The position numbers and the translations under genes were made by a program. 64,000 nt of DNA from Sphaerisporangium krabiense (GTDB lineage: Bacteria; Actinomycetota; Actinomycetes; Streptosporangiales; Streptosporangiaceae). Shown in pieces: positions 14,649 to 35,525 of this stretch (its first letter is position 1; each line of letters begins with the position of its first letter). The stretch is from assembly GCF_014200435.1 (NCBI RefSeq), contig NZ_JACHBR010000001.1:6204001-6268000 (forward strand), written 5' to 3'. The notes below the pieces were generated by a model. The model was not told the DNA's origin, did no database searches, and saw only the letters and a list, made by a program, of their open reading frames with translations.

Positions 14649-15881
14649 TCAGAAGTGGGTGTACGCCAGCTCGGTCACCGTGCAGTCGGCGTCGACCACC
14701 GGGATGACCCGCCACTTGTCGAAGGTCGTACACGGGTGGGAGATGCCGAACGCGACGACGTCGCCCACCGTGAGCGGCAGGTCCGCGGGCAGGGCGAGAT
14801 ACGCGTGCTGGTCGTTGACGGCGGTCACCCGTACCTCGCCGTCGAACGGGGTGATCCGGCCGGTGCGGTCGCGCACCATGCGGGGCACCGGCAGCCCGTC
14901 GTCGGCGGAGGCGTCCCGGCGGCCCAGCCCGGCCAGCGCCAGCGTCGGCTCGGGGCGGGACAGCACCGGCGCCCAGATCCGCAGCGCCTCGCGGAGCCGG
15001 TACGGGGCGCGTGGCCGGGCGCCGAAGGGGGAGAGCGCCTCATAGCCACCGGCGTCGTGGGTGACGTAGCACCCGCTGCGCAGGACGGTCCGGTACGGCG
15101 TGCCGGCCAGGGCCGGGGGCAGTCGCCGTGCCACCCGGTCGAAGTAGGCGCTGCCGCCCACCGTGACGATCGGCGCGGGCCCGGCGCCGATCAGCCCGTC
15201 CGCGTGCGCGGTGCGCGCCACGCCGGAGAGCCGGTCGAGGAGCCGGTCGACCAGCGTCAGGGTATCGGCGAGGTCGGCGCCGTGCAGGATGCCCTCGAAA
15301 GCGGAGAACCCGGCCAGCACCATCGGGCCGTCCGCGATCCTGGCCGCCAGGGCGAGCGCGTCGCGGTCGTCGCGCAGGCCGGTCCGTCCGCCGGTCACGC
15401 CGATCTCGACGAGAACCCGTGCCCGGCCGCGCAGGCCCGCGTCGATGCCGTTCTCCAGAGCGTGCAGCGCGGCCGGCGAATCGGTGTGGCAGTAGATTTC
15501 CAGGTCGTCGTAGGCCGCCAGCACGCCGTTGAGGAGCCGGAGCGAGCCGGGGTCGACGATGCAGTTGGCCAGCACCAGGCGGCGCACGCCCATGTCGGCC
15601 ACCGTCCGGGCCTGCCACGCGGTCGCCACGCTGATCGCCCACGCCCCGGCCGCCAGCTGCCGTTCGATGATCTGCGGGCACATCGTCGTCTTGCCGTGCG
15701 GGGCCAGCAGCACGCCATGGGCCGCGCAGTACGCGGCCATCGTGGCGACGTTGTGCTCGAGTTCGTCCCGGAGCAGCACGGCGGTGGGCAGCGGGAACGT
15801 GCCGTCGAAGAGCTGTGCGCCGCGCGGGTCGGCGACGTCGGGCAACCCTTTCGCGAGTGTGACAGCGGGCTCAGCCCACAT
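14649..15881 (-). CDS. D-serine dehydratase / D-threonine aldolase-like PLP enzyme (fold type III)
   Basis: 410 residues. The alanine-racemase-like barrel has the PLP lysine in APHGKTTM (Lys64), and the C-terminal domain has the metal pair His382 and Cys384 (GISHPCTTFDKW) that marks the zinc-dependent D-serine dehydratase/D-threonine aldolase group. These enzymes turn D-serine or D-threonine into pyruvate or 2-oxobutyrate plus ammonia, or cleave beta-hydroxy-D-amino acids. Its ATG overlaps the D-aminoacylase stop by eleven bases, so it is translated in the same operon and would take the D-amino acid that enzyme releases. Which D-amino acid cannot be read. Confidence 0.82.
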   Translation of the reverse strand: MWAEPAVTLAKGLPDVADPRGAQLFDGTFPLPTAVLLRDELEHNVATMAAYCAAHGVLLAPHGKTTMCPQIIERQLAAGAWAISVATAWQARTVADMGVRRLVLANCIVDPGSLRLLNGVLAAYDDLEIYCHTDSPAALHALENGIDAGLRGRARVLVEIGVTGGRTGLRDDRDALALAARIADGPMVLAGFSAFEGILHGADLADTLTLVDRLLDRLSGVARTAHADGLIGAGPAPIVTVGGSAYFDRVARRLPPALAGTPYRTVLRSGCYVTHDAGGYEALSPFGARPRAPYRLREALRIWAPVLSRPEPTLALAGLGRRDASADDGLPVPRMVRDRTGRITPFDGEVRVTAVNDQHAYLALPADLPLTVGDVVAFGISHPCTTFDKWRVIPVVDADCTVTELAYTHF

Positions 15882-17475
15882 GGCGCAGCACCTTTCCCGG
15901 GCGGGCGGTGCCGAGCACGCCGTCCCGTACGACGATTCGACCGCCGACCACGGTCAGCGCGATCCCCACCGGCGCCTGCCGGGGCCGTTCGAAGGTGGCC
16001 CGGTCGGCGACCACGGAGCGGTCGAAGGCGACCAGGTCGGCGACGAATCCCGGACGGATCCGCCCGCGATCGCGCAGGCCGAGCCGGGCCGCCGGGGCGG
16101 CGGTCATCTTGTGCACCGCGTCGGGCCAGGTCAGGACGCCGAGTTCGCGCACGTAGCGCCCGAGGACCCGGGCGTTGGCGCCGTAGGCGCGTGGGTGCGG
16201 CTGGCCGGCGCCGGCGCGTAACGGCAGCGCGTTGCCGTCCGAGCCCACGATCGAAAGGCGATGGGCGAGGAACGCGGTCATGTCGGCCTCGGTGCGATAG
16301 TGCAGCACCACCTGGGCCGCGCTGCCCAGTTCGACGCACAGGTCGAGCAGGACCTCCTCGGGCGGCCGCCGCCGGAGCCGGGCCACCTCGGCGATGGAGC
16401 TGCCGGGCAGGTCCTCGTACGGCCCGGCGGCGGTGATCACGACCCGGTCCCAGTGCCAGGGAATGCCGCCGAAGAAGCCGGCGCGGATGTCGCCGAGCGC
16501 GCGCCGCCGCCATGCGGCGTCGCCGGAGTTCCGCCGCAGGCCGGCGCTGCCGTCCCGCTGCACCCACTCGGGGAGGTACTGCACCAGCGCCGAGGACGAG
16601 GCGTCGTAGGGGTAGACGTCGAAGGCCACGTCGAGGCCCCGCGCCTCGGCGGCGTCGAAGCGGGCGAGCGCGTCGGCGGCGCGGCCCCAGGAGGCGGGAT
16701 CGTTCAGCGCGAGGTGGGAGAACTGCAGCCGCCCGCCGGTACGCCTGGCTGTGTCGACGGCTTCGTCGACGGCCGCGAGTTCCCGGCCGGCCGAGGCCCG
16801 GGCGTGGGTGGCGTAGACGGCGTCGTGCGCGGCGCAGATCTCGGCGAGCGCGGTCACCTCGCCGGGCCCGCCGAGTGAGGACGGCGTGTGGGTGAGCCCG
16901 GTGGACAGGCCGAACGCGCCGGCCGCGAGCGCGTCGTCGAGCAGGCGCCGCATGCGGGCGACGTCGTCGGCGGTGGCCGGGCCGTACGGGTCGTCCATCG
17001 CGGCGATCCGCAGCGCGCCGTGACCGGCGAGGGCGGCCACGTTGATGGCCGGTCGCGCGCCGGTCAGGGCCTCGGCGTACCCGTCGAAGCCGGTCCAGGT
17101 GACCGGGGCGGGGCCGTCGCCCAGGCGGGCGAGGTGGTCGGTCAGCAGGTGGTGGCGGGCCGGATGCACCGGGAACGCCGAGTACCCGCAGTTGCCGACC
17201 ACCTCGGTGGTCACGCCCTGCAGGGCCTTGCTCTCGCCGCGCGGGTCGAGCAGCAGGCTGACGTCGGAATGGGTGTGGACGTCGATGAATCCGGGAGCGA
17301 GGGTGAGCCCGGTCAGGTCGACGGTCTCGGCCGCCGTCACGCCGTCGCCCGGGGAGGCCCCTGGCGCCGCCAGATGGGTGATCCGGTCCGAGGTCACCCC
17401 GATGTCGAGCCGGCGCTCCGGCGCACCGGTGCCGTCCAGCACGGTGGCCCCGTGCAGCCACAGGTCGTAGGCCAT
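15871..17475 (-). CDS. N-acyl-D-amino-acid deacylase (D-aminoacylase), amidohydrolase superfamily
   Basis: 534 residues. Metal ligands visible are His67 and His69 (FIDVHTHSD), Cys96 (VVGNCGYS), His in YATHARA and QFSHL, and Asp in IVGSDG; the first three fall at the positions I recall for the characterised Alcaligenes enzyme. The N- and C-terminal strands form the urease-type beta sandwich. It hydrolyses N-acyl-D-amino acids to the free D-amino acid. GGGAG six bases upstream supports the ATG. It is the second gene of the IclR operon, 18 bases after the regulator. In place of an N-acyl group the true leaving group could be something larger, given the neighbours. Confidence 0.88.
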   Translation of the reverse strand: MAYDLWLHGATVLDGTGAPERRLDIGVTSDRITHLAAPGASPGDGVTAAETVDLTGLTLAPGFIDVHTHSDVSLLLDPRGESKALQGVTTEVVGNCGYSAFPVHPARHHLLTDHLARLGDGPAPVTWTGFDGYAEALTGARPAINVAALAGHGALRIAAMDDPYGPATADDVARMRRLLDDALAAGAFGLSTGLTHTPSSLGGPGEVTALAEICAAHDAVYATHARASAGRELAAVDEAVDTARRTGGRLQFSHLALNDPASWGRAADALARFDAAEARGLDVAFDVYPYDASSSALVQYLPEWVQRDGSAGLRRNSGDAAWRRRALGDIRAGFFGGIPWHWDRVVITAAGPYEDLPGSSIAEVARLRRRPPEEVLLDLCVELGSAAQVVLHYRTEADMTAFLAHRLSIVGSDGNALPLRAGAGQPHPRAYGANARVLGRYVRELGVLTWPDAVHKMTAAPAARLGLRDRGRIRPGFVADLVAFDRSVVADRATFERPRQAPVGIALTVVGGRIVVRDGVLGTARPGKVLRHVG

Positions 17476-17493
17476 CGGGACTCCCTTCCAGGA

Positions 17494-18258
17494 TCAGGTG
17501 AGTGCGTTGCCGAGCTCCGCGCACACCTCGGCCAGGCGCCGCCCGACCATGGCCATGGTCTCGTCGGGCATGCGCGAGGTGGGCGCGGCGACGCTGATCG
17601 CGGCCACCGGCCGGCCCTCGCCGTCCAGGATCGACGCGGCCACGCAGCGGGAGCCCACCTCGTTCTCCTCGTCGTCGATGGCGTAGCCGAGCCGGCGGAA
17701 GGTCCCGAGGGCCGCGAGCAGCTCGTCGACCGAGGCGACCGCGTTGGGGGTGTGCCGCGACCAGTCGGCCTGGGCGAGCTGCTCGCGGGCGTGCTCCTCG
17801 GGGAGCGCCGCGAGGACCGCCTTGCCCAGCGCCGTGGTGTGCACCGGGTCGCGCAGCGCGATCTGCACCGTCGTGCGCAGCCGCTGCGCGCTCTCCACCG
17901 CGTCGAGGTAGACGACCTGGCCGTGGCTGACCACTCCGAGGTTGACGGTCTCGCCGAACTCCTCGTTGAGCGACTGCATGGCCGGGCGGGTCAGCCGGAC
18001 CAGGTCGGTGGAGTTCCGCGCCGCCCGGCTCAGGCCGTAGAGGGCGGGGCCGAGCGAGTACTCCTTGCGCGCCTCGTCGCGCACCACGTAGCCCCGCTGG
18101 TCGAGGGTCTTGAGTATCCGGTACGCCGCGGGCTTGGTGATCCCGGTGTGCTGGCAGAGCTGTGCCACGGTGCAGGGTGCGTCCGTCGCCATCCGGTCGA
18201 GGATGTCGAGTGCCTTGACGAGGACCCCGACCTCGTCGGACCGCCGTTCGCTGCTCAC
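17494..18258 (-). CDS. IclR-family transcriptional regulator of the D-amino acid / sugar-acid island
   Basis: 254 residues. A winged helix (LVKALDILDRMA, TVAQLCQHTGITKPAAYRILKTL) is followed by the IclR effector domain with GKAVLAALP, GYAIDDEENEVGSRCVAA and ISVAAPTSRMP. The reading frame is open far upstream, so the start was chosen by domain position: GTG at 18258 gives the normal family length, with AAAGGAG twelve bases upstream; TTG at 18267 is the alternative. It heads the operon with the D-aminoacylase and the D-serine-dehydratase-like enzyme and diverges from the long plus-strand set. The inverted repeat in that promoter recurs upstream of the importer gene, so it probably controls both. 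Confidence 0.9.
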   Translation of the reverse strand: MSSERRSDEVGVLVKALDILDRMATDAPCTVAQLCQHTGITKPAAYRILKTLDQRGYVVRDEARKEYSLGPALYGLSRAARNSTDLVRLTRPAMQSLNEEFGETVNLGVVSHGQVVYLDAVESAQRLRTTVQIALRDPVHTTALGKAVLAALPEEHAREQLAQADWSRHTPNAVASVDELLAALGTFRRLGYAIDDEENEVGSRCVAASILDGEGRPVAAISVAAPTSRMPDETMAMVGRRLAEVCAELGNALT

Positions 18259-18295
18259 CGGTACCAATTGCTCCTTTCGGGTGGATACCCACTCA

Positions 18296-18324
18296 TTGCG
18301 AAGTCCGATATGCGGAACTAGATT
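18296..18324 (+). promoter_or_regulatory. Divergent promoter with an IclR operator in its spacer
   Basis: On the plus strand TTGCGA (18296-18301) and TAGATT (18319-18324) are 17 bases apart. The inverted repeat TCCG-ATATG-CGGA occupies 18304-18316, inside the spacer. Read on the other strand it is TCCGCATATCGGA, matching the importer-gene sites at 12 of 13 bases. A protein here would block the promoter. The IclR assignment is inferred from position. Confidence 0.65.
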
Positions 18325-18363
18325 TCGCTTATCGTACAACGGCCGGATCGGAAGGGCAAAGCG

Positions 18364-19881
18364 ATGACGGTGCGGATCGGGCTGGGGGGCATCTGGCAGG
18401 AGACGAACACCTTCGCGGTCGAACCCACCACACTGGCGGACTTCCGCCGGTACCAGTTCTTCGAGGGGCCGGAGCTCGTGGCCTCGCTGCGCGGGACGGG
18501 CACCGAGCTGGGCGGGGCCATCGACGCCGCCCGGCAGCGGTCGGCCTACCCGGTGGGGCTGTTCTTCGGCGCCGCGCTTCCCTCCGGCATGGTCCGGGCG
18601 CGGGCGTTCGAGTCGATGCTGCGCCGGCTGGCAGCCCTCACCCGGGCGCGGCTTCCCCTCGACGGGCTGGTGCTGTCGCTGCACGGCGCGATGGTGGTCG
18701 ACGGTCATCCGGACCCCGAGGCGGAGATCGTCACGACCCTGCGTGCCGTCGTCGGCGACATCCCGATCGCCGCCACGCTGGACTACCACGCCAACGTCGG
18801 CGCGACCCTGCCCGAGGTCACCGACATCCTGGTCGGCTACCGCACCTATCCCCACGTCGACATGGCCGAACGCGGCGCGGAGGCGATGGAGGCGGTGCTG
18901 CGCCTGCTGCGCCCGCCGTGGCGGGGACGCCGCCCGGCCCGGCACCTGGAGAGGCTTCCGCTGCTCACCGTGCCCCCGGCCCAGGAGGACGTGGCCGAGC
19001 CGATGCGGTCCATCCTCGCCGCGGCCGAGCGGATACGCGCCGAGCCCGGCGTCTGGGCCGCCAGCGCGCTGCCCGGGTTCGCCTACGCCGAGAGCGGCAG
19101 GCTCGGGTTCGCGGTGTACCTGGCGGCGGAGACCCATGCGGTGGCGCGCGCCCGGGAACTGGCCGCCCACGTGTGGCGCGAGCGCGACGCGTTCTCCGCG
19201 CCGCTGGCCGGTCCCGCCGAGGCGGTGGCCGAGGTGGCCGGCGCCCGGGGGAGGAGGCCCACCGTGCTGGTCGACGTCGCGGACAACGTGGGCGGCGGCT
19301 CGCCGGGCGACGGTACGGCGCTGCTCCACGCGCTGGCCCAGGCCGGGGTGGCGGGCGCCATCGCGGTCATCTGGGATCCGGCCGCGGTGGCCGCCGCGCA
19401 CGCGGGGTCCGCCGACCGGATCGACCTGTGGGTGGGCGGCCACAGCGACCCGGCGATGGGACCGCCGTTCCGCGCCTCAGGGCCGGTCCGCCGCTTCGAC
19501 TCCGTGTCGTACCTGCGTACGGGCTCGTACATGCGCGGCCAGCGGGTGGAGATGGGCCGGGTGGCGGTGATCGAGACGCCGATCGGCGCGATCGTCCTGA
19601 CCGAGAACCGGGTGGTCCCCTTCGATGACGATCATCTGCGCGCCGTGGGCCTGGAGCCGCGCGGCGCCCGCGTGATCGTCGCCAAGGGGGCCATCGCGTG
19701 GAAGGCCGCGTTCGCCGGCTACGCCGCGCGGACCCTCTACGTCCGCACTCCGGGGTACTGCCCGGCCGCGCTCGACCAGCTCGACTACCGGTCCCGCCCG
19801 GCGCCGCTCTACCCGCTGGAACGGGACCCCGCCTGGGAGTCCGCGGTGGCCGCCCGGCTGACCTCGGGGAACCGTCCGTAA
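18364..19881 (+). CDS. M81-family metallopeptidase (MlrC-like), copy 1
   Basis: 505 residues, cytoplasmic. It opens with GGIWQETNTF, and the family metal-binding set is present: Asp140 and His142 in LDYHAN and His164 in TYPHVD. Family members include MlrC, which cleaves linear microcystin and short peptides with D-amino acids; many homologues have no known substrate. GAAGGG eight bases upstream supports the ATG. It is first on the plus strand after the IclR-controlled promoter and is followed by a 133-base gap with its own promoter. A second M81 gene lies at 27196. Peptidase activity is family knowledge, not shown here. Confidence 0.85.
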   Translation: MTVRIGLGGIWQETNTFAVEPTTLADFRRYQFFEGPELVASLRGTGTELGGAIDAARQRSAYPVGLFFGAALPSGMVRARAFESMLRRLAALTRARLPLDGLVLSLHGAMVVDGHPDPEAEIVTTLRAVVGDIPIAATLDYHANVGATLPEVTDILVGYRTYPHVDMAERGAEAMEAVLRLLRPPWRGRRPARHLERLPLLTVPPAQEDVAEPMRSILAAAERIRAEPGVWAASALPGFAYAESGRLGFAVYLAAETHAVARARELAAHVWRERDAFSAPLAGPAEAVAEVAGARGRRPTVLVDVADNVGGGSPGDGTALLHALAQAGVAGAIAVIWDPAAVAAAHAGSADRIDLWVGGHSDPAMGPPFRASGPVRRFDSVSYLRTGSYMRGQRVEMGRVAVIETPIGAIVLTENRVVPFDDDHLRAVGLEPRGARVIVAKGAIAWKAAFAGYAARTLYVRTPGYCPAALDQLDYRSRPAPLYPLERDPAWESAVAARLTSGNRP

Positions 19882-19931
19882 CGCGCCTGGTCACAACTCG
19901 GTACCAGTCAAAGATCGGACATGTCGGGTGA

Positions 19932-19995
19932 TTGACACAGCGTTCCGGCATTTCTAGCTTAGTCCGCATAGCAGAAATGTAGTCCGCATAGCGGA
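19932..19995 (+). promoter_or_regulatory. Strong promoter with two tandem IclR-type sites
   Basis: TTGACA (19932-19937) and TAGCTT (19955-19960) are 17 bases apart. Right after the -10 box are TCCG-CATAG-CAGA (19963-19975, one arm imperfect) and TCCG-CATAG-CGGA (19983-19995, perfect, extending to TAGTCCGC/GCGGACTA). The copies are exactly 20 bases apart. Their place over the start point suggests repression. The AAGGGG site for the next gene begins at 20004. Confidence 0.75.
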
Positions 19996-20014
19996 CTAAC
20001 CCTAAGGGGTGGCA

Positions 20015-21223
20015 ATGCCTGACTCGTCGAAGGGCCTGGGCGGATTCAACCGGCGCGATCTCCTGCGCCTCAGCGTCATCACCGGAGCCGGGCTCGCCGT
20101 CGGCGCCCCGCTGCTCAGCGCGTGTTCGGTCGACAGCGGGACGAGCGGCGGCGCGGAGCAGAGCTCCACGCCCGGCGCCACCCGGAAGGCGATCGGCAAC
20201 GGCATCACCGAGAAGAAGGAACTGGCGCCCTTCCAGTTCGGCGGCCCGGCCGGCGAGAAGCCCGGCATCCCCAAGCGGATCGCCTGGGCCAACACCTCCG
20301 ACGCCGAGTTCTTCCTGCAGATCACCCGATCCATCGAGCTGGCCGCCACCGCCCGCGGGCTGGAGTTCGTGACGGCGATCGCCAACGACGACTCGGCCAA
20401 GAACGTCGAGCAGATCGAGACCTTCCTGCAGCGCGGCATCGGCGCGCTGTGCATCCAGCCGCTGGACGCCAACGCCCAGGCTCCGCTGATGAAGCGCGCG
20501 ATCGAGGCGGGCGCCGCCGTGATGTCGCTGGTGACCCCGCCGAGCACCTCACAGGCCGTCGCCGACCAGTACAAGGTCGGGAACACCCAGGGGCTGGCCG
20601 CCGCCAAGTACATCACCGAGAAACTGGGCGGCAAGGCCAAGGCCGTCTACTTCAACATCGACACCATCGAGGTGCTCAAGGCCCGGCACCAGGGCGTGCT
20701 GGACGGCCTGAAGTCCGCCGGATCGGGTGTGAAGATCGTCTCCGACGTGCAGCCGTCGGCCCTCACCCAGGACGGCGGCTTCAAGGCGATGAACACCATC
20801 CTGCAGGCCCACCCCGACGTCAACGTCGTCGTGGGCGGCGACACGCACTGCCTGGGCGCGCTGTCGGCACTGAAGGCCGCCGGCAAGGACCGGCCGGAGA
20901 TGTACCTGTCCGGGATCGACGGTGACGAGCAGGCCCTGGCCGAGATCCGCAAGGGCGGGGCCTACAAGGCCAGCTTCGCCTTCGCCTACCCGCTGATGGG
21001 CTACGCCTGGGGACAGTTCGCGGCGGACTGGCTGGAGGGCAAGCCGATCCCCCAGGTCATGCAGTTCAACGCCGTCGAGCTCAACTCCGCCGAGATCATC
21101 GACAGGTACCAGGCCGACATGAAGGCGGTGGCCGAGACCTGGAAGAACGCCGCCACCTACTTCACCCTGCTGGGCTCCGTCCGCTACCAGGAACGAGACC
21201 AGTTCATCAACTACGCCGCCTGA
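20015..21223 (+). CDS. Substrate-binding protein of a CUT2 (ribose-type) ABC importer, Tat lipoprotein
   Basis: 402 residues. The N-terminus has a twin-arginine motif (NRRDLLRLS), a hydrophobic stretch and a lipobox (LLSAC, Cys37), so it is exported folded and lipid-anchored. The mature domain is a periplasmic-binding fold of the ribose/galactose type (ITRSIELAATARGLEF, IGALCIQPLDANAQ, VVVGGDTHCLGALSALKAAG). These bind monosaccharides, polyols and related small molecules. ATG at 20015 is chosen over GTG at 20009 because AAGGGG ends five bases before it. It is the first gene after the promoter with two IclR-type sites and precedes the fused permease-ATPase. Confidence 0.9.
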   Translation: MPDSSKGLGGFNRRDLLRLSVITGAGLAVGAPLLSACSVDSGTSGGAEQSSTPGATRKAIGNGITEKKELAPFQFGGPAGEKPGIPKRIAWANTSDAEFFLQITRSIELAATARGLEFVTAIANDDSAKNVEQIETFLQRGIGALCIQPLDANAQAPLMKRAIEAGAAVMSLVTPPSTSQAVADQYKVGNTQGLAAAKYITEKLGGKAKAVYFNIDTIEVLKARHQGVLDGLKSAGSGVKIVSDVQPSALTQDGGFKAMNTILQAHPDVNVVVGGDTHCLGALSALKAAGKDRPEMYLSGIDGDEQALAEIRKGGAYKASFAFAYPLMGYAWGQFAADWLEGKPIPQVMQFNAVELNSAEIIDRYQADMKAVAETWKNAATYFTLLGSVRYQERDQFINYAA

Positions 21224-21243
21224 ACCGCCTCTTAGGGGTTGCT

Positions 21244-23133
<1,890 letters not shown>

Positions 23134-23134
23134 C

Positions 23135-23902: not shown

Positions 23903-23916
23903 AGGAGACCTATCCG

Positions 23917-25200: not shown

Positions 25201-25211
25201 GGGAGCGTCTC

Positions 25212-28692: not shown

Positions 28693-29729
28693 GCTCCACC
28701 CCGGCTCCGCTGTTCCTGGCGGACAACCGGATACCGGTCTACTACTCGGGCGGCGAGCGGATCAGCGAGTTCCGGGGCGGCGGCGACGGCCCGACCGGCC
28801 CGGAGGACTGGGTCGGCTCGCTCACCGCCCTGCCCGCCGCCATCCTGCCCCCCGGGTACCCCCCGGACACGGGCGTCTCGCGCACCGGCCGCGGCTCGCT
28901 GCGCGACCTGGTGGAAGCCGACCCACAGGCCTGGCTGGGGGAGGAGCTCGCCGCCGCCCACGGCACGGAAAGCGGGCTGCTGGTCAAGCTGCTCGACGCG
29001 GGCGAACGGCTGCCGGTGCACTGCCACCCGACCCGCGACTTCGCCCGCGCCCACCTGGGCAGCCGGTTCGGCAAGACCGAGGGCTGGATCGTGCTGGCCG
29101 CCGCGCCCGGGGCCCAGGTCTGGCTCGGCATGCGCGACCGGATCACCGCCGGGGAACTGCGGAGCTGGATCACCGCCCAGGACGGCGCCGCCATGCTCGC
29201 CGCGATGAACCGGATCCCGGTCACCGGCGGCCAGGTGTTCTACGTCCCCGCCGGGCTGCCGCACGCCATCGGCGCCGGCGTGATGGTGACCGAGCTGCAG
29301 GAGCCGACCTCGTTCTCGGTGCTCGCCGAGCACGACGCGTTCGGGCTGGGCCCGGAGGCGGCGACGCTCGGACTGGGCTGGGATCTCGCGCTGACCTGCT
29401 TCGACCTGAACGGCTACGCCGACCGGCTGGGCGAGCTGATGCCCGCGCCCCGTGACCTGCGGTCGTCCTCCGGCGGCCGGCTGCGCAGCCTCTTCCCCGC
29501 CGGCGCGGACGCCTACTTCCGTGCCTGGCAGGCGGAGTGCACCGAGGAGCTGGCCCTGCCGGCCGGTTTCGCCGTCCTCGTCGTCACCGGCGGCGCGGGC
29601 ACCCTGGTCTGGAACGGCGGAGAAACCCCCATCGCGCGCGGCCAGACGCTGGTGGTGCCCGCCGCGGCCGGACCGCCGCGCCTGAGGGGCACGGTCCGGG
29701 TGATCGCCTGCCTGCCCCCGGAGTGCTGA
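28689..29729 (+). CDS. Mannose-6-phosphate-isomerase-like cupin protein
   Basis: 346 residues. It shows the type I phosphomannose isomerase pattern: VHCHP (the usual QVHP region), FGKTEGW, and VPAGLPHAIGAG followed by ELQEPTSF. The residues that bind zinc in the family (His, Glu, His) are present, although the first motif reads HCHP and not QVHP. It could isomerise an unphosphorylated or modified sugar. ATGA overlap with the M81 stop. Confidence 0.75.
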   Translation: MSSTPAPLFLADNRIPVYYSGGERISEFRGGGDGPTGPEDWVGSLTALPAAILPPGYPPDTGVSRTGRGSLRDLVEADPQAWLGEELAAAHGTESGLLVKLLDAGERLPVHCHPTRDFARAHLGSRFGKTEGWIVLAAAPGAQVWLGMRDRITAGELRSWITAQDGAAMLAAMNRIPVTGGQVFYVPAGLPHAIGAGVMVTELQEPTSFSVLAEHDAFGLGPEAATLGLGWDLALTCFDLNGYADRLGELMPAPRDLRSSSGGRLRSLFPAGADAYFRAWQAECTEELALPAGFAVLVVTGGAGTLVWNGGETPIARGQTLVVPAAAGPPRLRGTVRVIACLPPEC

Positions 29730-30616
29730 TGGACCTCGGCCGCCTGCCCCGCCTCCCCGCGCGTACCGTCCAGGTCGTCGACAGCCGGTGCGCGCTGGGG
29801 GAGAGCCCGCTGTGGCTGCCCGCCGCCGCGGAACTGCGCTGGGTCGACGCGGTACGCGGCGAGCTGCACGCGCTGGGCCCGGGCGGGCACGAACGGCGGC
29901 CCGTCGTGACCGGGGTGCTCAGCGCGGTCGCCGCCGACACGGGCGGCGGCCTGGTGCTCACCGCCGACCGGCGGGTCCTTCGCACGGCCGGGCCGGACGG
30001 ACCGGCGACCGTGCTCGCGCGGATCCCCGACCAGCCCCCCGGGATACGGTTCAACGACGCGAAGGCGGGCCCGGACGGCAGGCTCTGGGCGGGCACGGTC
30101 CACCCGGGACGGCCGGGCGCCGCCGCCCTGTGGTCGATCGGCCCCACCGGCGAGACCGTCCGGCACTGGTCCGGGATCGGCCACGGCAACGGCATCGCCT
30201 GGAGCCCGTCCGGCGACACGATGTTCTTCGTCGACAGCGGCGAACGCACCGTGTCCCGCGCCGCGTTCTCCCCGGCGCTCGGGGCACGCGAGGTCATCGC
30301 CCGGATCCCCGGCGGCATCCCCGACGGCCTGACCGTGGACGCCCAGGCCGACCTGTGGCTCGCCGTCTGGGGCGGCGGATGTCTGGTACGGCTGCGCGCC
30401 GACGGCACGCCGGTCGGACGGGTCGACCTGCCCGACCGGAACGTCACCTCGTGCGCCTTCGCCGGCCGCGACCTCGGCCTGCTCGCGGTGACCACCGCCG
30501 AGGACGACGCCGGCCCGGCCGGCGGCGGGGGATCGGTCTACCTGCTCGACGTCGGCCGGCGCGGCGTCCCCGGATATCTGTTCGGCGCGACCGCGGAAAG
30601 GAGCGGTGGCCAATGA
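29729..30616 (+). CDS. SMP-30/gluconolactonase-family lactonase
   Basis: 295 residues, six-bladed propeller type. The metal-binding set is visible: Glu in GESPLW, Asn in RFNDAKAGPDGRLWAG, Asn in GNGIAWSPSGD and Asp in PDGLTVDAQ. It opens sugar lactones to acids. The stop of the isomerase gene and its ATG share one base. In the pathway it would act after a dehydrogenase makes the lactone and before the dehydratase. Confidence 0.85.
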   Translation: MDLGRLPRLPARTVQVVDSRCALGESPLWLPAAAELRWVDAVRGELHALGPGGHERRPVVTGVLSAVAADTGGGLVLTADRRVLRTAGPDGPATVLARIPDQPPGIRFNDAKAGPDGRLWAGTVHPGRPGAAALWSIGPTGETVRHWSGIGHGNGIAWSPSGDTMFFVDSGERTVSRAAFSPALGAREVIARIPGGIPDGLTVDAQADLWLAVWGGGCLVRLRADGTPVGRVDLPDRNVTSCAFAGRDLGLLAVTTAEDDAGPAGGGGSVYLLDVGRRGVPGYLFGATAERSGGQ

Positions 30617-31665
30617 GCATGCGACAGGTATGGATCAACGGGCCCGAGCGGGTCGAGGTGCGCGACGTGCCGATCCCCCGGCCGGGGGAGGGCGAGGTCC
30701 TGGTACGCATGGCCTACGCCGGCATCTGCGGCTCGGACCTGCACACCCTGCGGCGCGGGCACCCGTGGCTGCCCTATCCGATCGCGCCGGGCCACGAGGC
30801 GTCCGGCGTGGTGGCCGAGATCGGTCCCGGCACGTCCGGGTTCGCGGTGGGCGACGCCGTCTACCTGCGCCCGGCCCTGCACTGCGGACGGTGCTTCTAC
30901 TGCCGGCGCGGCCGGGAGAACCTGTGCGCCGACCTGGTCGGGATCGGCTCGCACCGGCCCGGCGCGTTCGCGGACCACTTCGCGGTGCCGTACGCCGCGC
31001 TCGCCCCGGTCCCCGCCGGTGTCGGTCTGGGGGCGGCGGCGATGACCGAGCCGCTGGCCACCGCGGTGCACGCGGTCGCCCTGGCGGCCGGGCGCGGCGG
31101 GCGGCTCGACGGGTGCACGGCCGCCGTGCTCGGCGGCGGCACGATCGGGCAGTGCGTGCTGCTCGCGGCGCTCGACGCGGGCGCCGGCGCGGTGGCGGTC
31201 ACCGACCCCGTCGCGGCCAAGCGGGAGCTGGCCACCCGGCTGGGCGCGGTGGCGGCCCTGGACGCGGCCGGCCCGGCGCTAGAAGCCGGCATCGCCGATG
31301 CCCTCGGCGGCCGTCCGGACGTGGTCTTCGACTGCGTGGCGACCGCCGGCTCGCTGGGTGTCGCGATCTCGCTGTCGATCCGCGGCGGCAGCGTGATCGT
31401 CGTCGGCGTCGGCCACGGCCCGCTGGAGGTCGCCATCGAGGCCGTTCAGGACCAGGAGATCCGCATCGCCGGCTCGGCCATGTACGTGCCCGGCGACTTC
31501 ACCGCGGCGGAGCGGCTCATCGCCGCGGGGGCGCCGGTCGACCGGCTCGTCACCTCGGTACGTCCGGTCGGCGACGCGCCGGACGCGCTGCGCACGGCCG
31601 CCACCGGCGCCGAAGTCAAGATCCACCTGTCCGGCCCGGCCGCGGGCCGATCGCAGGCATCGTAG
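30613..31665 (+). CDS. Zinc-dependent dehydrogenase, copy 1 (sorbitol/threonine-dehydrogenase type)
   Basis: 350 residues, medium-chain dehydrogenase. It has the catalytic zinc Cys in GICGSDLH, GHEASGVVAEIG, the structural zinc cysteines CGRCFYCRRGRENLC and a glycine-rich cofactor loop LGGGTIGQ. AAAGGAG nine bases upstream and an ATGA overlap with the lactonase gene set the start. The likely role is oxidation of a polyol or sugar to a ketone or lactone, with the cofactor unknown. Confidence 0.87.
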   Translation: MSMRQVWINGPERVEVRDVPIPRPGEGEVLVRMAYAGICGSDLHTLRRGHPWLPYPIAPGHEASGVVAEIGPGTSGFAVGDAVYLRPALHCGRCFYCRRGRENLCADLVGIGSHRPGAFADHFAVPYAALAPVPAGVGLGAAAMTEPLATAVHAVALAAGRGGRLDGCTAAVLGGGTIGQCVLLAALDAGAGAVAVTDPVAAKRELATRLGAVAALDAAGPALEAGIADALGGRPDVVFDCVATAGSLGVAISLSIRGGSVIVVGVGHGPLEVAIEAVQDQEIRIAGSAMYVPGDFTAAERLIAAGAPVDRLVTSVRPVGDAPDALRTAATGAEVKIHLSGPAAGRSQAS

Positions 31666-31678
31666 GAGGAGGAACCCG

Positions 31679-32773
31679 ATGCGCGTAGCCACGCCGGTGC
31701 TGTTCCGGGCGGGCGCTCCGCACCGCGTCGTCGAACTCGACGTCGACGAACCCCGCGCGGGTGAGGTGCGGGTACGGATGGCGGCCTCCGGGGTCTGCCA
31801 TAGCTGCCTGTACGCGATGAACGGCCGGCACGCGGGGATCCCGATGCCGATCGTGCTGGGCGACGAGGGGGCCGGGGTGGTCGAGTCGGTCGGCCCCGGC
31901 GTCACGTCGGTCACCGAAGGCGACCACGTCATCGTCTCCTGGGCGCCCGGCTGCGGCCGGTGCCGCACCTGCCTGCGGGGAGCCCCCGCCCTGTGCGCCG
32001 CCCAGCCGCCCCTCGGCCGGATGGCCGACCACACCACCCGGTTCCACCTCGACGGCGCGCGGGTCTTCCACTACGGCCCGGCCACCAACGCGCCGCTCAC
32101 CGTGCTGAACGAACGCGCCGTGGTCCCCGTCGACCCGCGGATCCCGCTGGACCTGGCCGCGCTGATCGGCTGCGCCGCCGCGACCGGGGTGGGCGCGGTG
32201 CGCAACACCGCGCGGGTGCGGACCGGCGAGAGCATGGTCGTGGTCGGCTGCGGCGGGGTCGGCGTCAGCGCCCTGCACGCGGGCGCGCTGGCCGGCGCGT
32301 ACCCGATCGTGGCCGTCGACGTGGTGCCGGAGAAGTTCCCCGCGCTCACGGCACTCGGCGCCACGCACTGTGTGGACGCGAGAGCCGGCGACGCCGCCGC
32401 GCGCGTCCTCGAGATCACCCGCGGTGGCGCCGACCACGCGTTCGTCACCAGCAGCGCGCCGTCCGCGTTCCCGCTCGCGATCCGCGTGCTGGCCGCCCAG
32501 GGCACCTGTGTGCTGATCGCCGGCTACCCGGACGGCGCGACGCTCTCCTTCGACCCGGGACATCTGCTCAACGGGGAACGCCGGATCATCGCCTCCAAGT
32601 ACGGATCGTCGAACCCGCCGGTCGACTTTCCCGATCTGGCGGGCCTCTATCTCGCCGGACGGCTGCGCCTGGACGAACTGGTCTCAGGAAGATGGCGGAT
32701 CGATCAGGTGGACGAGGCCTACGAGGCCCTCGCCTCCGGCACGCAGACCCGCGGCCTGATCGTCTTCGAGTGA
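31679..32773 (+). CDS. Zinc-dependent alcohol dehydrogenase, copy 2 (class III-like)
   Basis: 364 residues. Catalytic cysteine in GVCHSCLY, structural zinc cysteines in CGRCRTCLRG, and glycine loop GCGGVGVS. The usual GHE of the zinc site reads GDEGAGVV, so one ligand His appears replaced by Asp; this may be a family variant or a change in metal use. SD GGAGGAGG lies six or seven bases ahead of the ATG. It is clearly different from copies 1 and 3. Confidence 0.85.
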   Translation: MRVATPVLFRAGAPHRVVELDVDEPRAGEVRVRMAASGVCHSCLYAMNGRHAGIPMPIVLGDEGAGVVESVGPGVTSVTEGDHVIVSWAPGCGRCRTCLRGAPALCAAQPPLGRMADHTTRFHLDGARVFHYGPATNAPLTVLNERAVVPVDPRIPLDLAALIGCAAATGVGAVRNTARVRTGESMVVVGCGGVGVSALHAGALAGAYPIVAVDVVPEKFPALTALGATHCVDARAGDAAARVLEITRGGADHAFVTSSAPSAFPLAIRVLAAQGTCVLIAGYPDGATLSFDPGHLLNGERRIIASKYGSSNPPVDFPDLAGLYLAGRLRLDELVSGRWRIDQVDEAYEALASGTQTRGLIVFE

Positions 32774-32792
32774 CCCGGACGAGGAGGAACCC

Positions 32793-33791
32793 ATGCACGC
32801 GGTGGTGGTAGAGGCGCCGGACCGGCTCGCCGTGACCCAGGTGCCCGATCCGGCGCCGGCGTCCGGCGGCGTGGTGATCGCCGTCCGTGCGTGCGGCATC
32901 TGCGGCACCGACCTGCACCTGGTCGCCGGCGACCTGGGGGCGGACCGGCTGCCGCTGATCCCCGGGCACGAGCCGTACGGCGAGGTGGTCGCGGTCGGCG
33001 CCGAGGTCGGCGGGTACGCGGTGGGCGACCTCGTCGCCGTCGACCCGTCGCTGCACTGCGGCCGGTGCGTCCCGTGCCGGCGCGGTCAGGGCAACATGTG
33101 CCTGCGGTGGGGCGCGATCGGCGCCACCAGGCCCGGGGCGTGGGCGCAGTTCACCGCCGTGCCCGAGGCCAACCTGTACCGGCTGCCGGAGTCGTTCCCC
33201 CTGGAGGCGGCCCCACTGGCCGAGCCGGTGGCCTGCGCGGTCCGCGGCCTGCACCGGCTGAACCCCCGGCCCGACGAGCCCGCGATCGTCTTCGGGGCCG
33301 GCACGATGGGGCTCATCCTGGCGATCATGCTGGACCTGCGGGGCGTCGGGCCGGTGACCGTGGTCGACGTCAATCCGGCCAGGCGGGAACTCGCCGAACG
33401 GCTCACCGGGGCACGCGCCTGCGACCCCGAGGAAGCCGCTCACCTCCGGGCGCCGTGGGTGATCGAGGCCACCGGCAGCCCGCGGGCGTTCGCCCAGGCC
33501 CTCGACAGCGTGGCGCGCGCCGGGCACCTGCTGGTCTTCGGCGTCGCCTCGCCCCAGGCCACGGCCACCGTGTCGCCGTACCGGATCTACGCCGACGAGC
33601 TGACCATCGTGGGGTCGATGGCCATCCTGAACAGCTTCCCCCCGGCCATCGACGTCATCCGCCGCCACGCGGCCCGGCTGGCGCCGCTGATCACCGACGG
33701 CTTCGGCCTGGACAGGATCGAGGACGCGCTGGCCCTGGTACGGTCCGGGCGGACCGTCAAGACCGTGCTCACCCCGGAGGCGGGGCGGTGA
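32793..33791 (+). CDS. Zinc-dependent dehydrogenase, copy 3
   Basis: 332 residues. Catalytic zinc in GICGTDLH, GHEPYGEVVAVG, structural cysteines CGRCVPCRRGQGNMC and glycine loop GAGTMGLI. It is nearest to copy 1 in layout. GAGGAGG upstream supports the ATG. The next SDR overlaps its stop by four bases (GTGA). Confidence 0.87.
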   Translation: MHAVVVEAPDRLAVTQVPDPAPASGGVVIAVRACGICGTDLHLVAGDLGADRLPLIPGHEPYGEVVAVGAEVGGYAVGDLVAVDPSLHCGRCVPCRRGQGNMCLRWGAIGATRPGAWAQFTAVPEANLYRLPESFPLEAAPLAEPVACAVRGLHRLNPRPDEPAIVFGAGTMGLILAIMLDLRGVGPVTVVDVNPARRELAERLTGARACDPEEAAHLRAPWVIEATGSPRAFAQALDSVARAGHLLVFGVASPQATATVSPYRIYADELTIVGSMAILNSFPPAIDVIRRHAARLAPLITDGFGLDRIEDALALVRSGRTVKTVLTPEAGR

Positions 33792-34531
33792 CCGGGCGGA
33801 CGATCCTGATCACCGGAGCCCGCCGGGGCATCGGAGCGGCACTCGCCGAGGGCCTGGCGGAGCCGGGCACCACACTGGTACTCCACCACCTGGCCGCCGA
33901 GCAGGAGACCGCCGAGGTCGCGCGGCGCTGCGCGGAGGCGGGCGCGACGGTGCGGATCGCCGAGGCCGACCTGGCCGACCCGGCCGCGACGTCGGCGCTG
34001 GCGGACCGGGCCGGAGCGGTCGACATCCTGGTCAACAACGCGGCCAGGGCCTCGAACGTGGCGATCGGCGAACTGTCGCCCGCCGAGTGGCAGGCGACCT
34101 TCGCGGTGAACGTGACCGCCCCGATGCTGCTGGCGCAGGCGCTGGCCGGCGGGATGCGGGCGCGGGGCTGGGGGCGAGTGATCAACATCACCTCGGCCAC
34201 GGTACGGCTGGCGGGCCCCTCCGGACCGGCCTACGTCGCCAGCAAGGCGGCGCTGGTCGGGCTCACCCGGTCGCTGGCGCGGGCGTGGGGCCCGGACGGC
34301 GTCACGGTCAACGCGATCTCGCCCGGCGCTATCAGGACGGAGAGCGAGGTCGAACTCGCCGGCGGCCGTGACCAGGCCGACCTGGACGACGACGTGATCG
34401 CCCGGCAGGCGATGCGCCGCCGGCTGGTGCCGGAGGACCTGGTCGCGGCGGCGCGTTTCCTGGCCGGTGACGGCGCCGCCGGAGTCACCGGCCAGGTGAT
34501 CGAGGTCGGCGCCGGTCTCGTCTACCGCTGA
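33788..34531 (+). CDS. SDR, copy 3
   Basis: 247 residues. Cofactor motif TGARRGIG, NNAA, and the YVASK pair. GTG at 33788 overlaps the copy 3 zinc dehydrogenase stop. In the L-fucose and L-rhamnose type non-phosphorylated routes an SDR makes the 2,4-diketo-3-deoxy acid that an FAH hydrolase then cleaves; the FAH gene follows here after 145 bases, so this is the best candidate for that step, by analogy only. Confidence 0.87.
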   Translation: MTGRTILITGARRGIGAALAEGLAEPGTTLVLHHLAAEQETAEVARRCAEAGATVRIAEADLADPAATSALADRAGAVDILVNNAARASNVAIGELSPAEWQATFAVNVTAPMLLAQALAGGMRARGWGRVINITSATVRLAGPSGPAYVASKAALVGLTRSLARAWGPDGVTVNAISPGAIRTESEVELAGGRDQADLDDDVIARQAMRRRLVPEDLVAAARFLAGDGAAGVTGQVIEVGAGLVYR

Positions 34532-34676
34532 GCCCGCAGGTGAGCCGGAGGACCGAAGCGGCGAAGTCGGCGGTCCCGAGGCGGACCCCGGCACGTTCGT
34601 CGTATCGCGTGACCACCGCCCGGAAGTTCCCCGGCCGGTCGGCCGCCACTGGAGTCCCTTCTGATCAGGAGAAGTC

Positions 34677-35525
34677 TTGTACCTCATGCGCATCGGCGAA
34701 CCCGGCGCCGAGAAGCCCGTCGTCCGCGTCGGCGAGTCCCACTACATCGACGTCTCGGACGTCACCCCCGATTTCGACGAGCGATTCTTCGCCGCGGGTG
34801 GCACCGCGCTGCTGGACGAGCGGGTCACCCGGGGCGACGTGCGGGCGTTCGCCGGTGAGCGGGTCGGCGCGCCGATCGCCCGGCCGCACCAGATCCTGTG
34901 CATCGGCCTGAACTACAGTGACCACGCCGCCGAGACCGGCCAGGCCGTCCCGGCCGAGCCGATCCTTTTCACCAAGTCGCCCAACACCCTGGTCGGCCCG
35001 TACGACGACGTGCGCATCCCGCGCGGCGCGTCCAAGACCGACTGGGAGGTGGAGCTGGGCATCGTCATCGGCCGCCGCGCCTCCTACCTGGACTCGCCGG
35101 AGGAGGCCGCCGATGTGATCGCCGGGTACTGCGTGGTCAACGACGTCAGCGAGCGCGCCTTCCAGATGGAGCGCGGCGGCCAGTGGAGCAAAGGCAAGTC
35201 GGCCGAGACGTTCAACCCGGCCGGGCCGTGGCTGGTCACCCCGGACGAGATTCCCGATGTCGGGAACCTCGGCATGTGGCTGGAGGTCAACGGGGTGCGC
35301 CGCCAGACCGGCACCACCGCGACCATGGTCTTCGACCCGTACGTGATCGTGCACCACCTGAGCCGGTTCATGGTGCTGGAGCCCGGCGACCTCGTCAACA
35401 CCGGCACCCCGCCCGGCGTCGGCATGGGCCACAACCCGCCCATCTGGCTCCAGCCCGGCGACGTCATGGAACTCGGCATCGACGGCCTCGGCACCCAGCG
35501 CCAGCGGGTCGTAGCACCGCGGTAG
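34677..35525 (+). CDS. Fumarylacetoacetate-hydrolase-family protein (diketo sugar-acid hydrolase candidate)
   Basis: 282 residues. The FAH fold is shown by PHQILCIGLNYSDHAAE, DWEVELGIVIG (metal Glu-x-Glu), YCVVNDVSERAFQ, and GTPPGVGMG. Family members cleave 2,4-diketo acids or 3-acylpyruvates. TTG at 34677 is chosen because GGAG is five bases upstream; ATG at 34686 is fourteen bases from it. It is the last gene of the island and would give pyruvate plus a short acid if the pathway is of the non-phosphorylated type. Confidence 0.85.
   Translation: MYLMRIGEPGAEKPVVRVGESHYIDVSDVTPDFDERFFAAGGTALLDERVTRGDVRAFAGERVGAPIARPHQILCIGLNYSDHAAETGQAVPAEPILFTKSPNTLVGPYDDVRIPRGASKTDWEVELGIVIGRRASYLDSPEEAADVIAGYCVVNDVSERAFQMERGGQWSKGKSAETFNPAGPWLVTPDEIPDVGNLGMWLEVNGVRRQTGTTATMVFDPYVIVHHLSRFMVLEPGDLVNTGTPPGVGMGHNPPIWLQPGDVMELGIDGLGTQRQRVVAPR

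What the first reader, a model, noticed from the sequence alone, without database searches (positions are those of the whole stretch)
14649..35525. A catabolic island that joins D-amino acid and sugar-acid enzymes under one regulator
Seen: D-aminoacylase, a D-serine-dehydratase-like PLP enzyme, two M81 metallopeptidases, a CUT2 importer, a class III aminotransferase, glucarate-dehydratase-like enzyme, lactonase, FAH hydrolase, isomerase, three SDRs and three zinc dehydrogenases in two divergent, tightly packed units. Known: the parts belong to separate pathways. Inferred: the substrate is one molecule with a D-amino acid (or D-peptide) and an (amino)sugar or sugar-acid part. A possible order is import, M81 or D-aminoacylase cleavage, D-amino acid breakdown to keto acid and ammonia, and for the other part dehydrogenase, lactonase, dehydratase, SDR and FAH cleavage to pyruvate.
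Basis: partly seen in the sequence, partly recalled or inferred. Interest (0 to 1): 0.8.

Follow-up and report, generated by a model that had tools for sequence, protein, structure and literature searches.

The report
Mobile sugar and amino-sugar catabolic island
Eighteen neighbouring genes form one jointly inherited, probably jointly controlled breakdown unit shared by several actinobacteria, and its "D-amino acid" enzymes may really work on an amino-sugar acid, so the odd mix could be one sugar pathway rather than two.

Summary
In detail: the named enzyme families are at 14649-35525, in two divergent, tightly packed units with one IclR gene between them. The island is a real unit: 16 of its 18 genes keep their order in all five other genomes held across it (Acrocarpospora, three Phytohabitans, Paractinoplanes). 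Flanks differ, and most genes are more alike between families than gyrase A, so it probably moves as a block. A 17-bp palindrome, AGTCCGC-N3-GCGGACY, lies before the importer gene in all six genomes, the only exact match in each; a weaker copy lies in the divergent promoter. This supports one regulator. A D-amino acid/sugar conjugate is not required. D-aminoacylase/D-serine-dehydratase-like pairs often sit with sugar-acid genes and resemble OngB/OngC, which turn N-acetylglucosaminic acid into 2-keto-3-deoxygluconate. FAH is nearest to 2,4-diketo-3-deoxyrhamnonate hydrolase. I propose an amino-aldonate branch and an aldonate branch that meet at a 2-keto-3-deoxy acid finished by SDR and FAH. Against: no RidA or KDG kinase, OngB signature half met, some relatives of the pair lie in non-sugar settings, FAH and lactonase absent from four of five related islands, M81, aminotransferase and isomerase unexplained. 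The substrate is not identified.

The parts
14649..15881 (-). DSD: fold-III PLP enzyme, D-serine-deaminase/OngC-like; candidate 2-amino-2-deoxyaldonate ammonia-lyase
   Evidence: PF14031 68.5 bits; best solved relative 3gwq 'D-serine deaminase'; HPC motif at 382
15871..17475 (-). DAA: D-aminoacylase-type amidohydrolase; candidate N-acyl-aminoaldonate deacylase
   Evidence: PF07969; solved relatives BbDam 3gip, AfDam 1m7j, PpOngB 9kb1; SSS loop as PpOngB
17494..18258 (-). IclR-family regulator, the only regulator gene found in the island
   Evidence: PF01614, PF09339; GTG at 18258; same length as in L017 and L019-L022
18302..18318 (.). degenerate palindrome in the divergent promoter (AGTCCGATATGCGGAAC)
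   Evidence: 3 mismatches to the importer-promoter site; AGTCCGNTNNNCGGAA conserved in 6 of 6 genomes
18364..19881 (+). M81a, MlrC-like metallohydrolase
   Evidence: PF07364 275 bits; tree joins it to an M81 of L027 (96/94) and, less surely, L106 (85/71)
19961..19997 (.). operator pair before the importer: half-like copy 19961-19977 and palindrome AGTCCGCATAGCGGACT 19981-19997
   Evidence: conserved in 6 of 6 genomes; only exact match genome-wide in 6 of 6 genomes
20009..21223 (+). ribose-type periplasmic binding protein (ATG alternative at 20015)
   Evidence: PF13407; best solved relatives are mostly ribose-type binding proteins, 75 bits or less
21244..23133 (+). fused permease (49-312) and single ABC ATPase (387-541)
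   Evidence: PF02653 and PF00005
23135..23902 (+). SDR1, gluconate-5-dehydrogenase-like
   Evidence: below cut-off
23917..25200 (+). GSAM-like class III aminotransferase (start uncertain)
   Evidence: PF00202; best solved relative 4zm3 'Aminotransferase'; starts
25212..26420 (+). MR: enolase-superfamily protein, probable acid-sugar dehydratase
   Evidence: PF13378/PF02746; glucarate dehydratase best NCBIfam, 158.1 bits, cut-off 828.7; KFK and HSDRELG motifs
26420..27196 (+). SDR2, candidate 2-keto-3-deoxyaldonate dehydrogenase
   Evidence: best window match (48%) of the SDR in L106
27196..28692 (+). M81b, MlrC-like metallohydrolase of the MR-linked lineage
   Evidence: PF07364; MlrC structure 7ylq 161 bits, Zn ligands aligned; tree
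28689..29729 (+). mannose-6-phosphate-isomerase-like cupin protein
   Evidence: 1qwr 55.4 bits; Pfam hits all below cut-off; beside M81b in L017-L023, L026, L030
29729..30616 (+). SMP-30/gluconolactonase family lactonase
   Evidence: PF08450 177.5 bits; start
30613..31665 (+). Zn-dehydrogenase 1
   Evidence: PF08240/PF00107; start
31679..32773 (+). Zn-dehydrogenase 2 (NDMA-dependent ADH-like)
32793..33791 (+). Zn-dehydrogenase 3
33788..34531 (+). SDR3
   Evidence: start
34677..35525 (+). FAH hydrolase, 2,4-diketo-3-deoxyrhamnonate-hydrolase-like (ATG alternative at 34686)
   Evidence: PF01557; NF053535 321.9 bits, cut-off 500; best solved relative 8gsr

Best explanation
It is a horizontally transferred island for import and non-phosphorylating oxidation of a sugar compound that carries an N-acylated amino sugar (or its aldonic acid). 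Shown: gene content, co-inheritance, boundaries, shared palindrome. Inferred: the steps. A ribose-type binding protein and the fused permease-ATPase import the compound. Dehydrogenases (ADH/SDR) oxidise sugar ends to lactones and SMP-30 opens them. An amino branch uses DAA to remove the N-acyl group from a 2-amino-2-deoxy-aldonate and DSD to eliminate ammonia, giving a 2-keto-3-deoxy-aldonate. A neutral branch uses MR to dehydrate an aldonate to the same kind of product. SDR2 (or SDR3) oxidises this product and FAH cleaves the diketo acid to pyruvate and a hydroxy acid (Route III). The aminotransferase, the isomerase-like protein and the two M81 hydrolases prepare the imported compound, for instance by removing a further amino group or amide; which one is unknown. 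The IclR protein binds the shared palindrome and controls both units and the importer.
For: DAA and DSD are of the families of OngB/OngC, shown by others to deacetylate GlcNAc1A and deaminate GlcN1A to KDG (PMC9537276, passages and section 13 read; DAA-PpOngB match). In a phylum sample DSD and DAA lie in one cluster in 11 of the 15 other genomes with a DSD match (295 others searched): 8 have a PfkB kinase, IclR and RidA, 6 of these also GntP; G377 has a KDPG/KHG aldolase, RidA and GntP; G356 has RidA and a glucosamine-6-phosphate-isomerase family gene; G325 (L106) has lactonase (32%), SDR (48% to SDR2), M81 (36%) and FAH (57%), a second joining of DAA/DSD to Route III-type genes. FAH is closest to L-2,4-diketo-3-deoxyrhamnonate hydrolase 8gsr (252 bits) and keeps a His and Glu three apart as in PMC6336799. 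MR has KxK and His motifs. In four of five related islands a GFO/IDH/MocA protein follows DSD (family checked on two). Co-inheritance. Operator.
Against: No RidA, PfkB kinase or KDPG aldolase in the island. DAA scores higher with the D-aminoacylases BbDam and AfDam than with PpOngB. DAA has PpOngB's Ser292 (S292T left 1.3% of kcat/Km, PMC12017989) but by ungapped counting Leu at 298, Gln at 296; the DAAs of the kinase-type clusters have Thr at 292, so residue rule and gene context disagree. Some relatives lie in non-sugar settings: the host's own DAA paralogue (43%) follows an importer with a family-3 (amino-acid type) binding protein; DAA of G226 and G194 have no DSD nearby; DSD of G173 and G137 lies among unrelated genes. 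FAH and lactonase are missing from the island in 4 of 5 relatives; a FAH of 68-82% identity lies elsewhere in 3 of these 4 (in one as two pieces), only 48% ones in the fourth. M81, aminotransferase and isomerase have no proven place. OngC itself also deaminates D-serine and D-threonine. SDR and ADH assignments are generic.
Confidence: 0.4

Rival explanations
1. One reading: the substrate is one molecule made of a true D-amino acid (or D-peptide) and a sugar acid; M81 or DAA splits it, DSD breaks the D-amino acid, the rest handles the sugar acid.
For: DAA's best solved relatives are D-aminoacylases; the M81 relative MlrC is an amidase of linearised microcystin (PMC9982164, passages), a peptide with D-amino acids (recalled); a DAA paralogue of the host lies beside an amino-acid-type importer; one regulator and one importer.
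Against: DSD-DAA pairs elsewhere in the phylum lie with gluconate permease, sugar kinase, KDPG aldolase or a glucosamine-isomerase gene in 10 of 11 cases and with lactonase/SDR/FAH in the other (the families of the 8 kinase-type clusters checked by Pfam on one); the binding protein is ribose-type, not peptide-type.
Confidence: 0.2
2. Aminocyclitol or multi-amino sugar (aminoglycoside-like) breakdown: the aminotransferase removes a ring amino group, IolM-like dehydrogenases oxidise the ring, an M81 hydrolase opens it, then the sugar-acid steps follow.
For: Aminotransferase is closest to 4zm3, recalled as PctV acting on a cyclic ketone; ADH1 and ADH3 match scyllo-inosose dehydrogenase IolM at 142.2 and 158.7 bits, cut-off 450; aminotransferase and M81 are near MR in 11 and 12 of 16 close MR loci, of which 7 are the island itself.
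Against: IolM hits are far below cut-off and threonine dehydrogenase models score alike; no precedent known to me for M81 as ring hydrolase; the paper search for the inositol route gave two unrelated hits.
Confidence: 0.15
3. A regulon of convenience: two or three independent pathways (D-amino acid salvage; Route III sugar oxidation; an MR-M81-aminotransferase pathway) brought together and kept because they are useful in the same niche.
For: Each module is found without the others elsewhere; the two M81 genes belong to two separate lineages, not a local duplication.
Against: Order of 16 genes kept in six genomes with differing flanks, and a shared palindrome; DAA/DSD joined to SGL/SDR/FAH/M81 also in L106.
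Confidence: 0.2

Closest known systems
ong pathway (oxidative chitin catabolism, Pseudoalteromonas prydzensis; PMC9537276, PMC12017989)
   Same: D-aminoacylase-fold deacylase plus fold-III PLP deaminase under a dedicated regulator
   Different: the ong cluster as described in the passages read uses RidA, KDG kinase and an SSS symporter; the island has none of these and adds MR, lactonase, FAH, M81 and aminotransferase; OngB signature only half met
Non-phosphorylative Route III of L-rhamnose, L-fucose and pentoses (PMC6336799)
   Same: aldose dehydrogenase, lactonase, acid-sugar dehydratase, SDR dehydrogenase, FAH-family hydrolase with ABC importer and regulator
   Different: adds DAA, DSD, class III aminotransferase, isomerase-like protein and two M81 proteins; FAH and lactonase are not in all copies of the island
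MlrC of microcystin degradation
   Same: M81 proteins with the zinc ligands
   Different: M81a and M81b score 151.2 and 155.3 against an NCBIfam cut-off of 999; no other mlr gene was seen in the island by Pfam naming, none was searched for

Membership tests
ong-type GlcNAc1A catabolism | D-aminoacylase-fold deacylase (OngB) homologue | tested here: met
   PF07969; PpOngB 9kb1 E 2.6e-69
ong-type GlcNAc1A catabolism | fold-III PLP deaminase (OngC) homologue | tested here: met
   PF14031; 3gwq E 1.3e-71; OngC's own sequence was not compared
ong-type GlcNAc1A catabolism | Ser292 and Gln298 of PpOngB | tested here: inconclusive
   Ser292 met, ungapped; 298 lies outside the printed alignment, Leu by counting, Gln at 296
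ong-type GlcNAc1A catabolism | RidA and KDG kinase in the cluster | tested here: not met
   none among the 18 genes; both present in 8 of 11 other DSD+DAA clusters
ong-type GlcNAc1A catabolism | activity on GlcNAc1A / GlcN1A | not testable with these tools
   needs enzyme assay
Route III sugar oxidation | FAH-family 2,4-diketo-acid hydrolase | tested here: inconclusive
   8gsr best solved relative, but NF053535 321.9 bits against cut-off 500; absent from the island in 4 of 5 relatives
Route III sugar oxidation | acid-sugar dehydratase | tested here: inconclusive
   MR with KxK and His motifs aligned to 4dye 'isomerase' (meaning of the motifs recalled); no family cut-off reached
Route III sugar oxidation | lactonase | tested here: met
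   SMP-30, PF08450; absent in L019-L022
Route III sugar oxidation | SDR 2-keto-3-deoxyaldonate dehydrogenase | tested here: inconclusive
   three SDRs; no equivalog cut-off reached in the rows shown
glucarate dehydratase (TIGR03247) | score over the curated cut-off 828.7 | tested here: not met
   158.1 bits
HemL glutamate-1-semialdehyde aminomutase (TIGR00713) | score over cut-off 527.3 | tested here: not met
   344.1 bits
microcystinase MlrC (NF041767) | score over cut-off 999 | tested here: not met
   151.2 and 155.3 bits
M81 metallohydrolases | zinc ligands Glu, Asp-x-His, His | tested here: met
   M81b aligned to 7ylq, M81a by motif; ligands from PMC9982164 passages; general base E70 of MlrC falls on Gly in the printed alignment
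CUT2 sugar importer | permease plus duplicated ABC ATPase (rule recalled) | tested here: not met
   one ABC_tran domain fused to the permease; binding protein and permease families fit
phosphomannose isomerase type I | Pfam cut-off (PF20511, 22 bits) | tested here: not met
   21.1 bits; 1qwr E 5.5e-14

The most novel reading that the evidence does not exclude
The island encodes an undescribed amino-sugar pathway in which a 2-amino-2-deoxy-aldonate is deacylated and deaminated by OngB/OngC-like enzymes but the 2-keto-3-deoxy acid is finished without phosphorylation by SDR and FAH, merged with an aldonate branch, with M81 proteins as new amide (not peptide) hydrolases of sugar metabolism.
Probability: 0.3. 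Interest if true: 0.65.

Novelty: new variant of a known kind. Interest (0 to 1): 0.5.

Why it matters
It gives a testable alternative to 'D-amino acid plus sugar': glucosaminate-like acids are both. If right, it would give a physiological setting to M81 enzymes, which I know mainly from microcystin breakdown, to an uncharacterised enolase-superfamily clade and to a HemL-like aminotransferase clade, and would show a second way to end amino-sugar-acid catabolism. The shared 17-bp palindrome makes the regulon directly testable. It also warns against naming D-aminoacylase/D-serine-dehydratase pairs as D-amino acid enzymes by homology alone.

Tried and rejected
Considered and dropped: a microcystin-degradation island (only M81 fits, far below the MlrC cut-off); a HemL or glucarate-dehydratase assignment (below cut-offs); local duplication of M81 (tree, midpoint root, three long branches); the Dpp-type operon 36158-42011 as part of the unit (not next to the island in Acrocarpospora). 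Inositol-pathway papers: two unrelated hits. Papers on a comparable cluster: none seen in the listings. The pattern GTCCGCANNGCGGAC with 3 mismatches gave 102 matches against 104.66 expected, so it carries no weight; genome-wide one-mismatch hits are at control level. In one search the query was the site itself, so 2 of its 4 matches are that palindrome on both strands. The HisG-like marker matched at 54% and was not used; it may be a paralogue. M81b search in the phylum sample: no match at E<=1e-90 in 295 other genomes, 5 candidates scored per genome.


Full report
OBSERVATION. The window is 64 kb of an 8.53-Mb genome in 4 contigs, GC 68-78% in 2-kb steps. The minus unit is DSD (14649-15881), DAA (15871-17475) and IclR (17494-18258). 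The plus unit runs from M81a (18364) to FAH (35525) and holds 15 genes. The importer's membrane part is one protein with a permease domain and a single ABC domain. The Dpp-type operon from 36158 is not counted in.

CO-INHERITANCE. One scan of a collection of 84,980 species genomes with the MR protein, by six peptide patterns, confirmed 127 relatives and kept the best 80 loci (records near the window's own genome may be left out). Their MR identities are 50% or more in 16 and lower in 64. tblastn of 27 window proteins against the 80 shows five loci held across the island: L017 Acrocarpospora catenulata has all 18 genes in order at 88-96% identity; L019, L020, L021 (Phytohabitans flavus, suffuscus, maris) and L022 (Paractinoplanes rishiriensis) have 16 of 18 in order and lack the lactonase and FAH there. 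L018 and L023 are short contigs with the parts that fit. The ends are sharp: with window 1-14700 as query, the only DNA match in the left flanks was 51 bp at the end of DSD in Acrocarpospora; in the four Micromonosporaceae a GFO/IDH/MocA gene follows DSD (family checked on two of four); the right neighbours differ.

TRANSFER. Two gyrase/topoisomerase-IV A proteins (PF00521; called gyrA and parC by me) are 71% and 59% identical between window and Phytohabitans flavus, while 15 island proteins compared are 65-87%; 13 of 15 exceed 71% (DSD 65 and M81a 70 do not; ADH2 was not compared). Between window and Acrocarpospora they are 87% and 84%, and 17 island proteins 90-96%. In a family sample MR had no match above 48% in 99 other genomes (matches at E<=1e-60 in 30 of them). 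The fused importer had no match at E<=1e-120 in 395 other phylum genomes, but only 3 first-look candidates were scored in each. M81 genes (PF07364, E<=1e-20): the host's only two lie in the island; 1 of 20 relatives has one, in another context. The simplest reading is horizontal transfer as a block.

ONE REGULATOR. Alignment of the intergenic stretches of the window, L017 and L019-L022 shows a palindrome AGTCCGC-N3-GCGGACY before the binding-protein gene in 6 of 6, a half-like copy GTCCGCATAGC 20 bp upstream in 6 of 6, and a weaker form AGTCCGNTNNNCGGAA in the divergent promoter in 6 of 6. In the window the importer site used as query with up to 3 mismatches gives 4 matches (0.20 expected; 0 of 100 shuffles reach 4); two of these are the site itself on both strands, the other two are its half-like copy and the divergent-promoter site, each with 3 mismatches. 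With AGTCCGCNNNGCGGACT the divergent site has 1-2 mismatches in L019-L022, 3 in the window and more than 3 in L017. In each of the six genomes the only exact place of AGTCCGCNNNGCGGACY is the importer site (rows are listed exact first; for the window's genome 3 of 20 rows are shown). One-mismatch matches are no more frequent than the reversed-pattern control. Binding by this IclR is inferred.

MODULES. With profiles of seven island families on six-frame ORFs of the 80 loci, M81 is on the same locus as MR in 12 of 16 loci with MR of at least 50% identity and in 1 of 64 below; the aminotransferase in 11 of 16 and 3 of 64; the isomerase-like gene in 9 of 16; DSD and DAA in 5 of 16. Seven of the 16 are island copies (two on contigs too short to show DSD/DAA); among the other nine M81 is in 5, the aminotransferase in 4, the isomerase-like gene in 2, DSD/DAA in none. 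Locus lengths differ. So a looser core of aminotransferase, MR, SDR2, M81b and isomerase exists outside the island, in full in L026 and in part in Conexibacter, Jiangella and an Acidimicrobiaceae MAG. MR of 78% identity also occurs in another setting, with an amino-acid permease, an FAD amine-oxidase-type protein, epimerase-like, RraA-like and lactonase genes, and FAH in two of three (L024, L029; not L025; families checked on L025, epimerase and RraA named by eye). In a tree of 22 M81 proteins (midpoint root) M81a joins an M81 of L027 (96/94) and, less surely, that of L106 (85/71); M81b joins the MR-linked ones (96/96). L163, L032 and L106 are long branches. The two M81 genes are thus separate lineages.

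WHAT THE D-AMINO ACID PAIR IS. In a phylum sample, DAA has a match at E<=1e-90 in 6 of 295 other genomes (4 candidates scored per genome in the rows shown) and DSD at E<=1e-60 in 15 of 295 (up to 6 scored). I fetched the surroundings of all these matches, about 8-10 kb each way where held. DSD and DAA are in one cluster in 11 of the 15. Eight genomes of one unnamed genus have PfkB kinase, IclR and RidA next to DSD-DAA, six of them also GntP (Pfam check on L112). G377 has a KDPG/KHG aldolase, RidA and GntP. G356 has RidA, two ROK-like genes and a glucosamine-6-phosphate-isomerase family gene. G325 (L106) has lactonase (32%), SDR (48% to SDR2), M81 (36%) and FAH (57%) with a Dpp-type importer, and no kinase or RidA seen. 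The other four have DSD without DAA nearby: G160 and G333 beside a weakly kinase-like gene and ROK-like and sugar-type ABC genes (by eye), G173 and G137 among unrelated genes. Of the six DAA genomes, G226 and G194 have no DSD nearby; G197 (L110) has a distant DSD (26%) beside RidA, an amidohydrolase (NagA-like by eye) and a ROK-family protein. The host's own second copies: a DAA (43%) after an importer with a family-3 binding protein (L107) and a DAA-DSD pair with RidA (L142). Amycolatopsis jejuensis (L162) has GntP-DAA-DSD facing kinase-IclR-RidA; second DSD genes in P. flavus and P. rishiriensis (L164, L165) lie with RidA-like genes and no DAA match. The kinase-type clusters resemble the ong pathway of Pseudoalteromonas, in which OngB deacetylates GlcNAc1A and OngC deaminates GlcN1A to KDG and also accepts D-serine and D-threonine (PMC9537276; passages and section 13 read). 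So the pair need not mean ordinary D-amino acids.

TEST BY RESIDUES. PMC12017989 (abstract, sections 7 and 10 read) names Ser292 and Gln298 as sugar-recognising residues of PpOngB, with Thr and Leu or Arg in D-aminoacylases. The window DAA reads YPYDASSSALVQYLP; PpOngB reads YPYAASSSTL, aligned without gaps. Ser292 is met, as in all five island relatives and L106 (YPYAASASALTQY). 9g5m, an amidohydrolase of a function unknown to me, also has SSS. Position 298 lies beyond the printed alignment; by counting it is Leu, with Gln at 296. The kinase-type clusters have YPYTPGCTTL or similar, Thr at 292. The test leans to a sugar acid for the island but disagrees with the context argument for the kinase-type clusters; I count it as inconclusive. 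DAA scores higher with BbDam and AfDam than with PpOngB.

THE SUGAR-ACID STEPS. MR aligns with 4dye/2oqh (267 bits) and carries KFK and HSDRELG motifs expected of acid-sugar dehydratases (rule recalled). FAH is nearest to 8gsr, L-2,4-diketo-3-deoxyrhamnonate hydrolase, with a His and a Glu three apart as described in PMC6336799 (passages read). That paper's Route III is dehydrogenase, lactonase, dehydratase, dehydrogenase, hydrolase. The four Micromonosporaceae lack FAH in the island; three have a FAH of 68-82% identity elsewhere (two adjacent pieces in P. flavus), beside IclR-, SDR- or lactonase-like genes; P. suffuscus has only about 48% ones.

VERDICT. A real, probably mobile, probably single-regulon catabolic island of unknown substrate. 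The best model is two branches, amino-aldonate (DAA, DSD) and aldonate (dehydrogenase, lactonase, MR), meeting at a 2-keto-3-deoxy acid that SDR and FAH finish. The roles of the M81 proteins, the aminotransferase (closest solved relative 4zm3, recalled as PctV) and the isomerase-like protein are open. No description of the cluster appeared in the listings, which search open-licence papers only.

Noticed in passing
G000:C1 about 220115-223571 (L142:6616-10072): The host genome has a second DAA-DSD pair with RidA beside it, without the island's other genes.
   Followed up: partly
L112, L133-L136, L138-L140, L162: A cluster of RidA, IclR and PfkB kinase (with GntP in most) facing DSD-DAA in eight genomes of one unnamed actinobacterial genus and in Amycolatopsis jejuensis looks like an actinobacterial version of the ong pathway, but with Thr, not Ser, at the OngB Ser292 place.
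   Followed up: partly
L106:3621-10603: Second joining of DAA, DSD, M81, lactonase, SDR and FAH, next to a SIS-domain protein, a weakly ceramidase-like protein and a Dpp-type importer.
   Followed up: partly
window 21244-23133; L026:1122-3052, L028:3655-5584, L030:14541-16417: Permease fused in front of a single ABC domain; in more distant relatives two adjacent genes match this protein separately, the better-matching shorter one (probably the ATPase) first.
   Followed up: partly
L157:1344-2405, L158:1952-3016, L159:1380-2444, L160:1228-2340: A GFO/IDH/MocA gene follows DSD in the four Micromonosporaceae islands but not in the window or Acrocarpospora (family checked on L157 and L158).
   Followed up: partly
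L024, L025, L029: MR of 78% identity in another cluster with an amino-acid permease, FAD amine-oxidase-type protein, epimerase-like, RraA-like and lactonase genes, with FAH in L024 and L029.
   Followed up: partly
window 36158-47029: Dpp-type ABC importer (five genes), glyoxalase-family protein, MFS, aldehyde dehydrogenase and a second IclR directly right of the island; probably a separate operon.
   Followed up: no
L191:8640-9496: In Phytohabitans flavus the FAH relative outside the island is read as two overlapping pieces in different frames.
   Followed up: no
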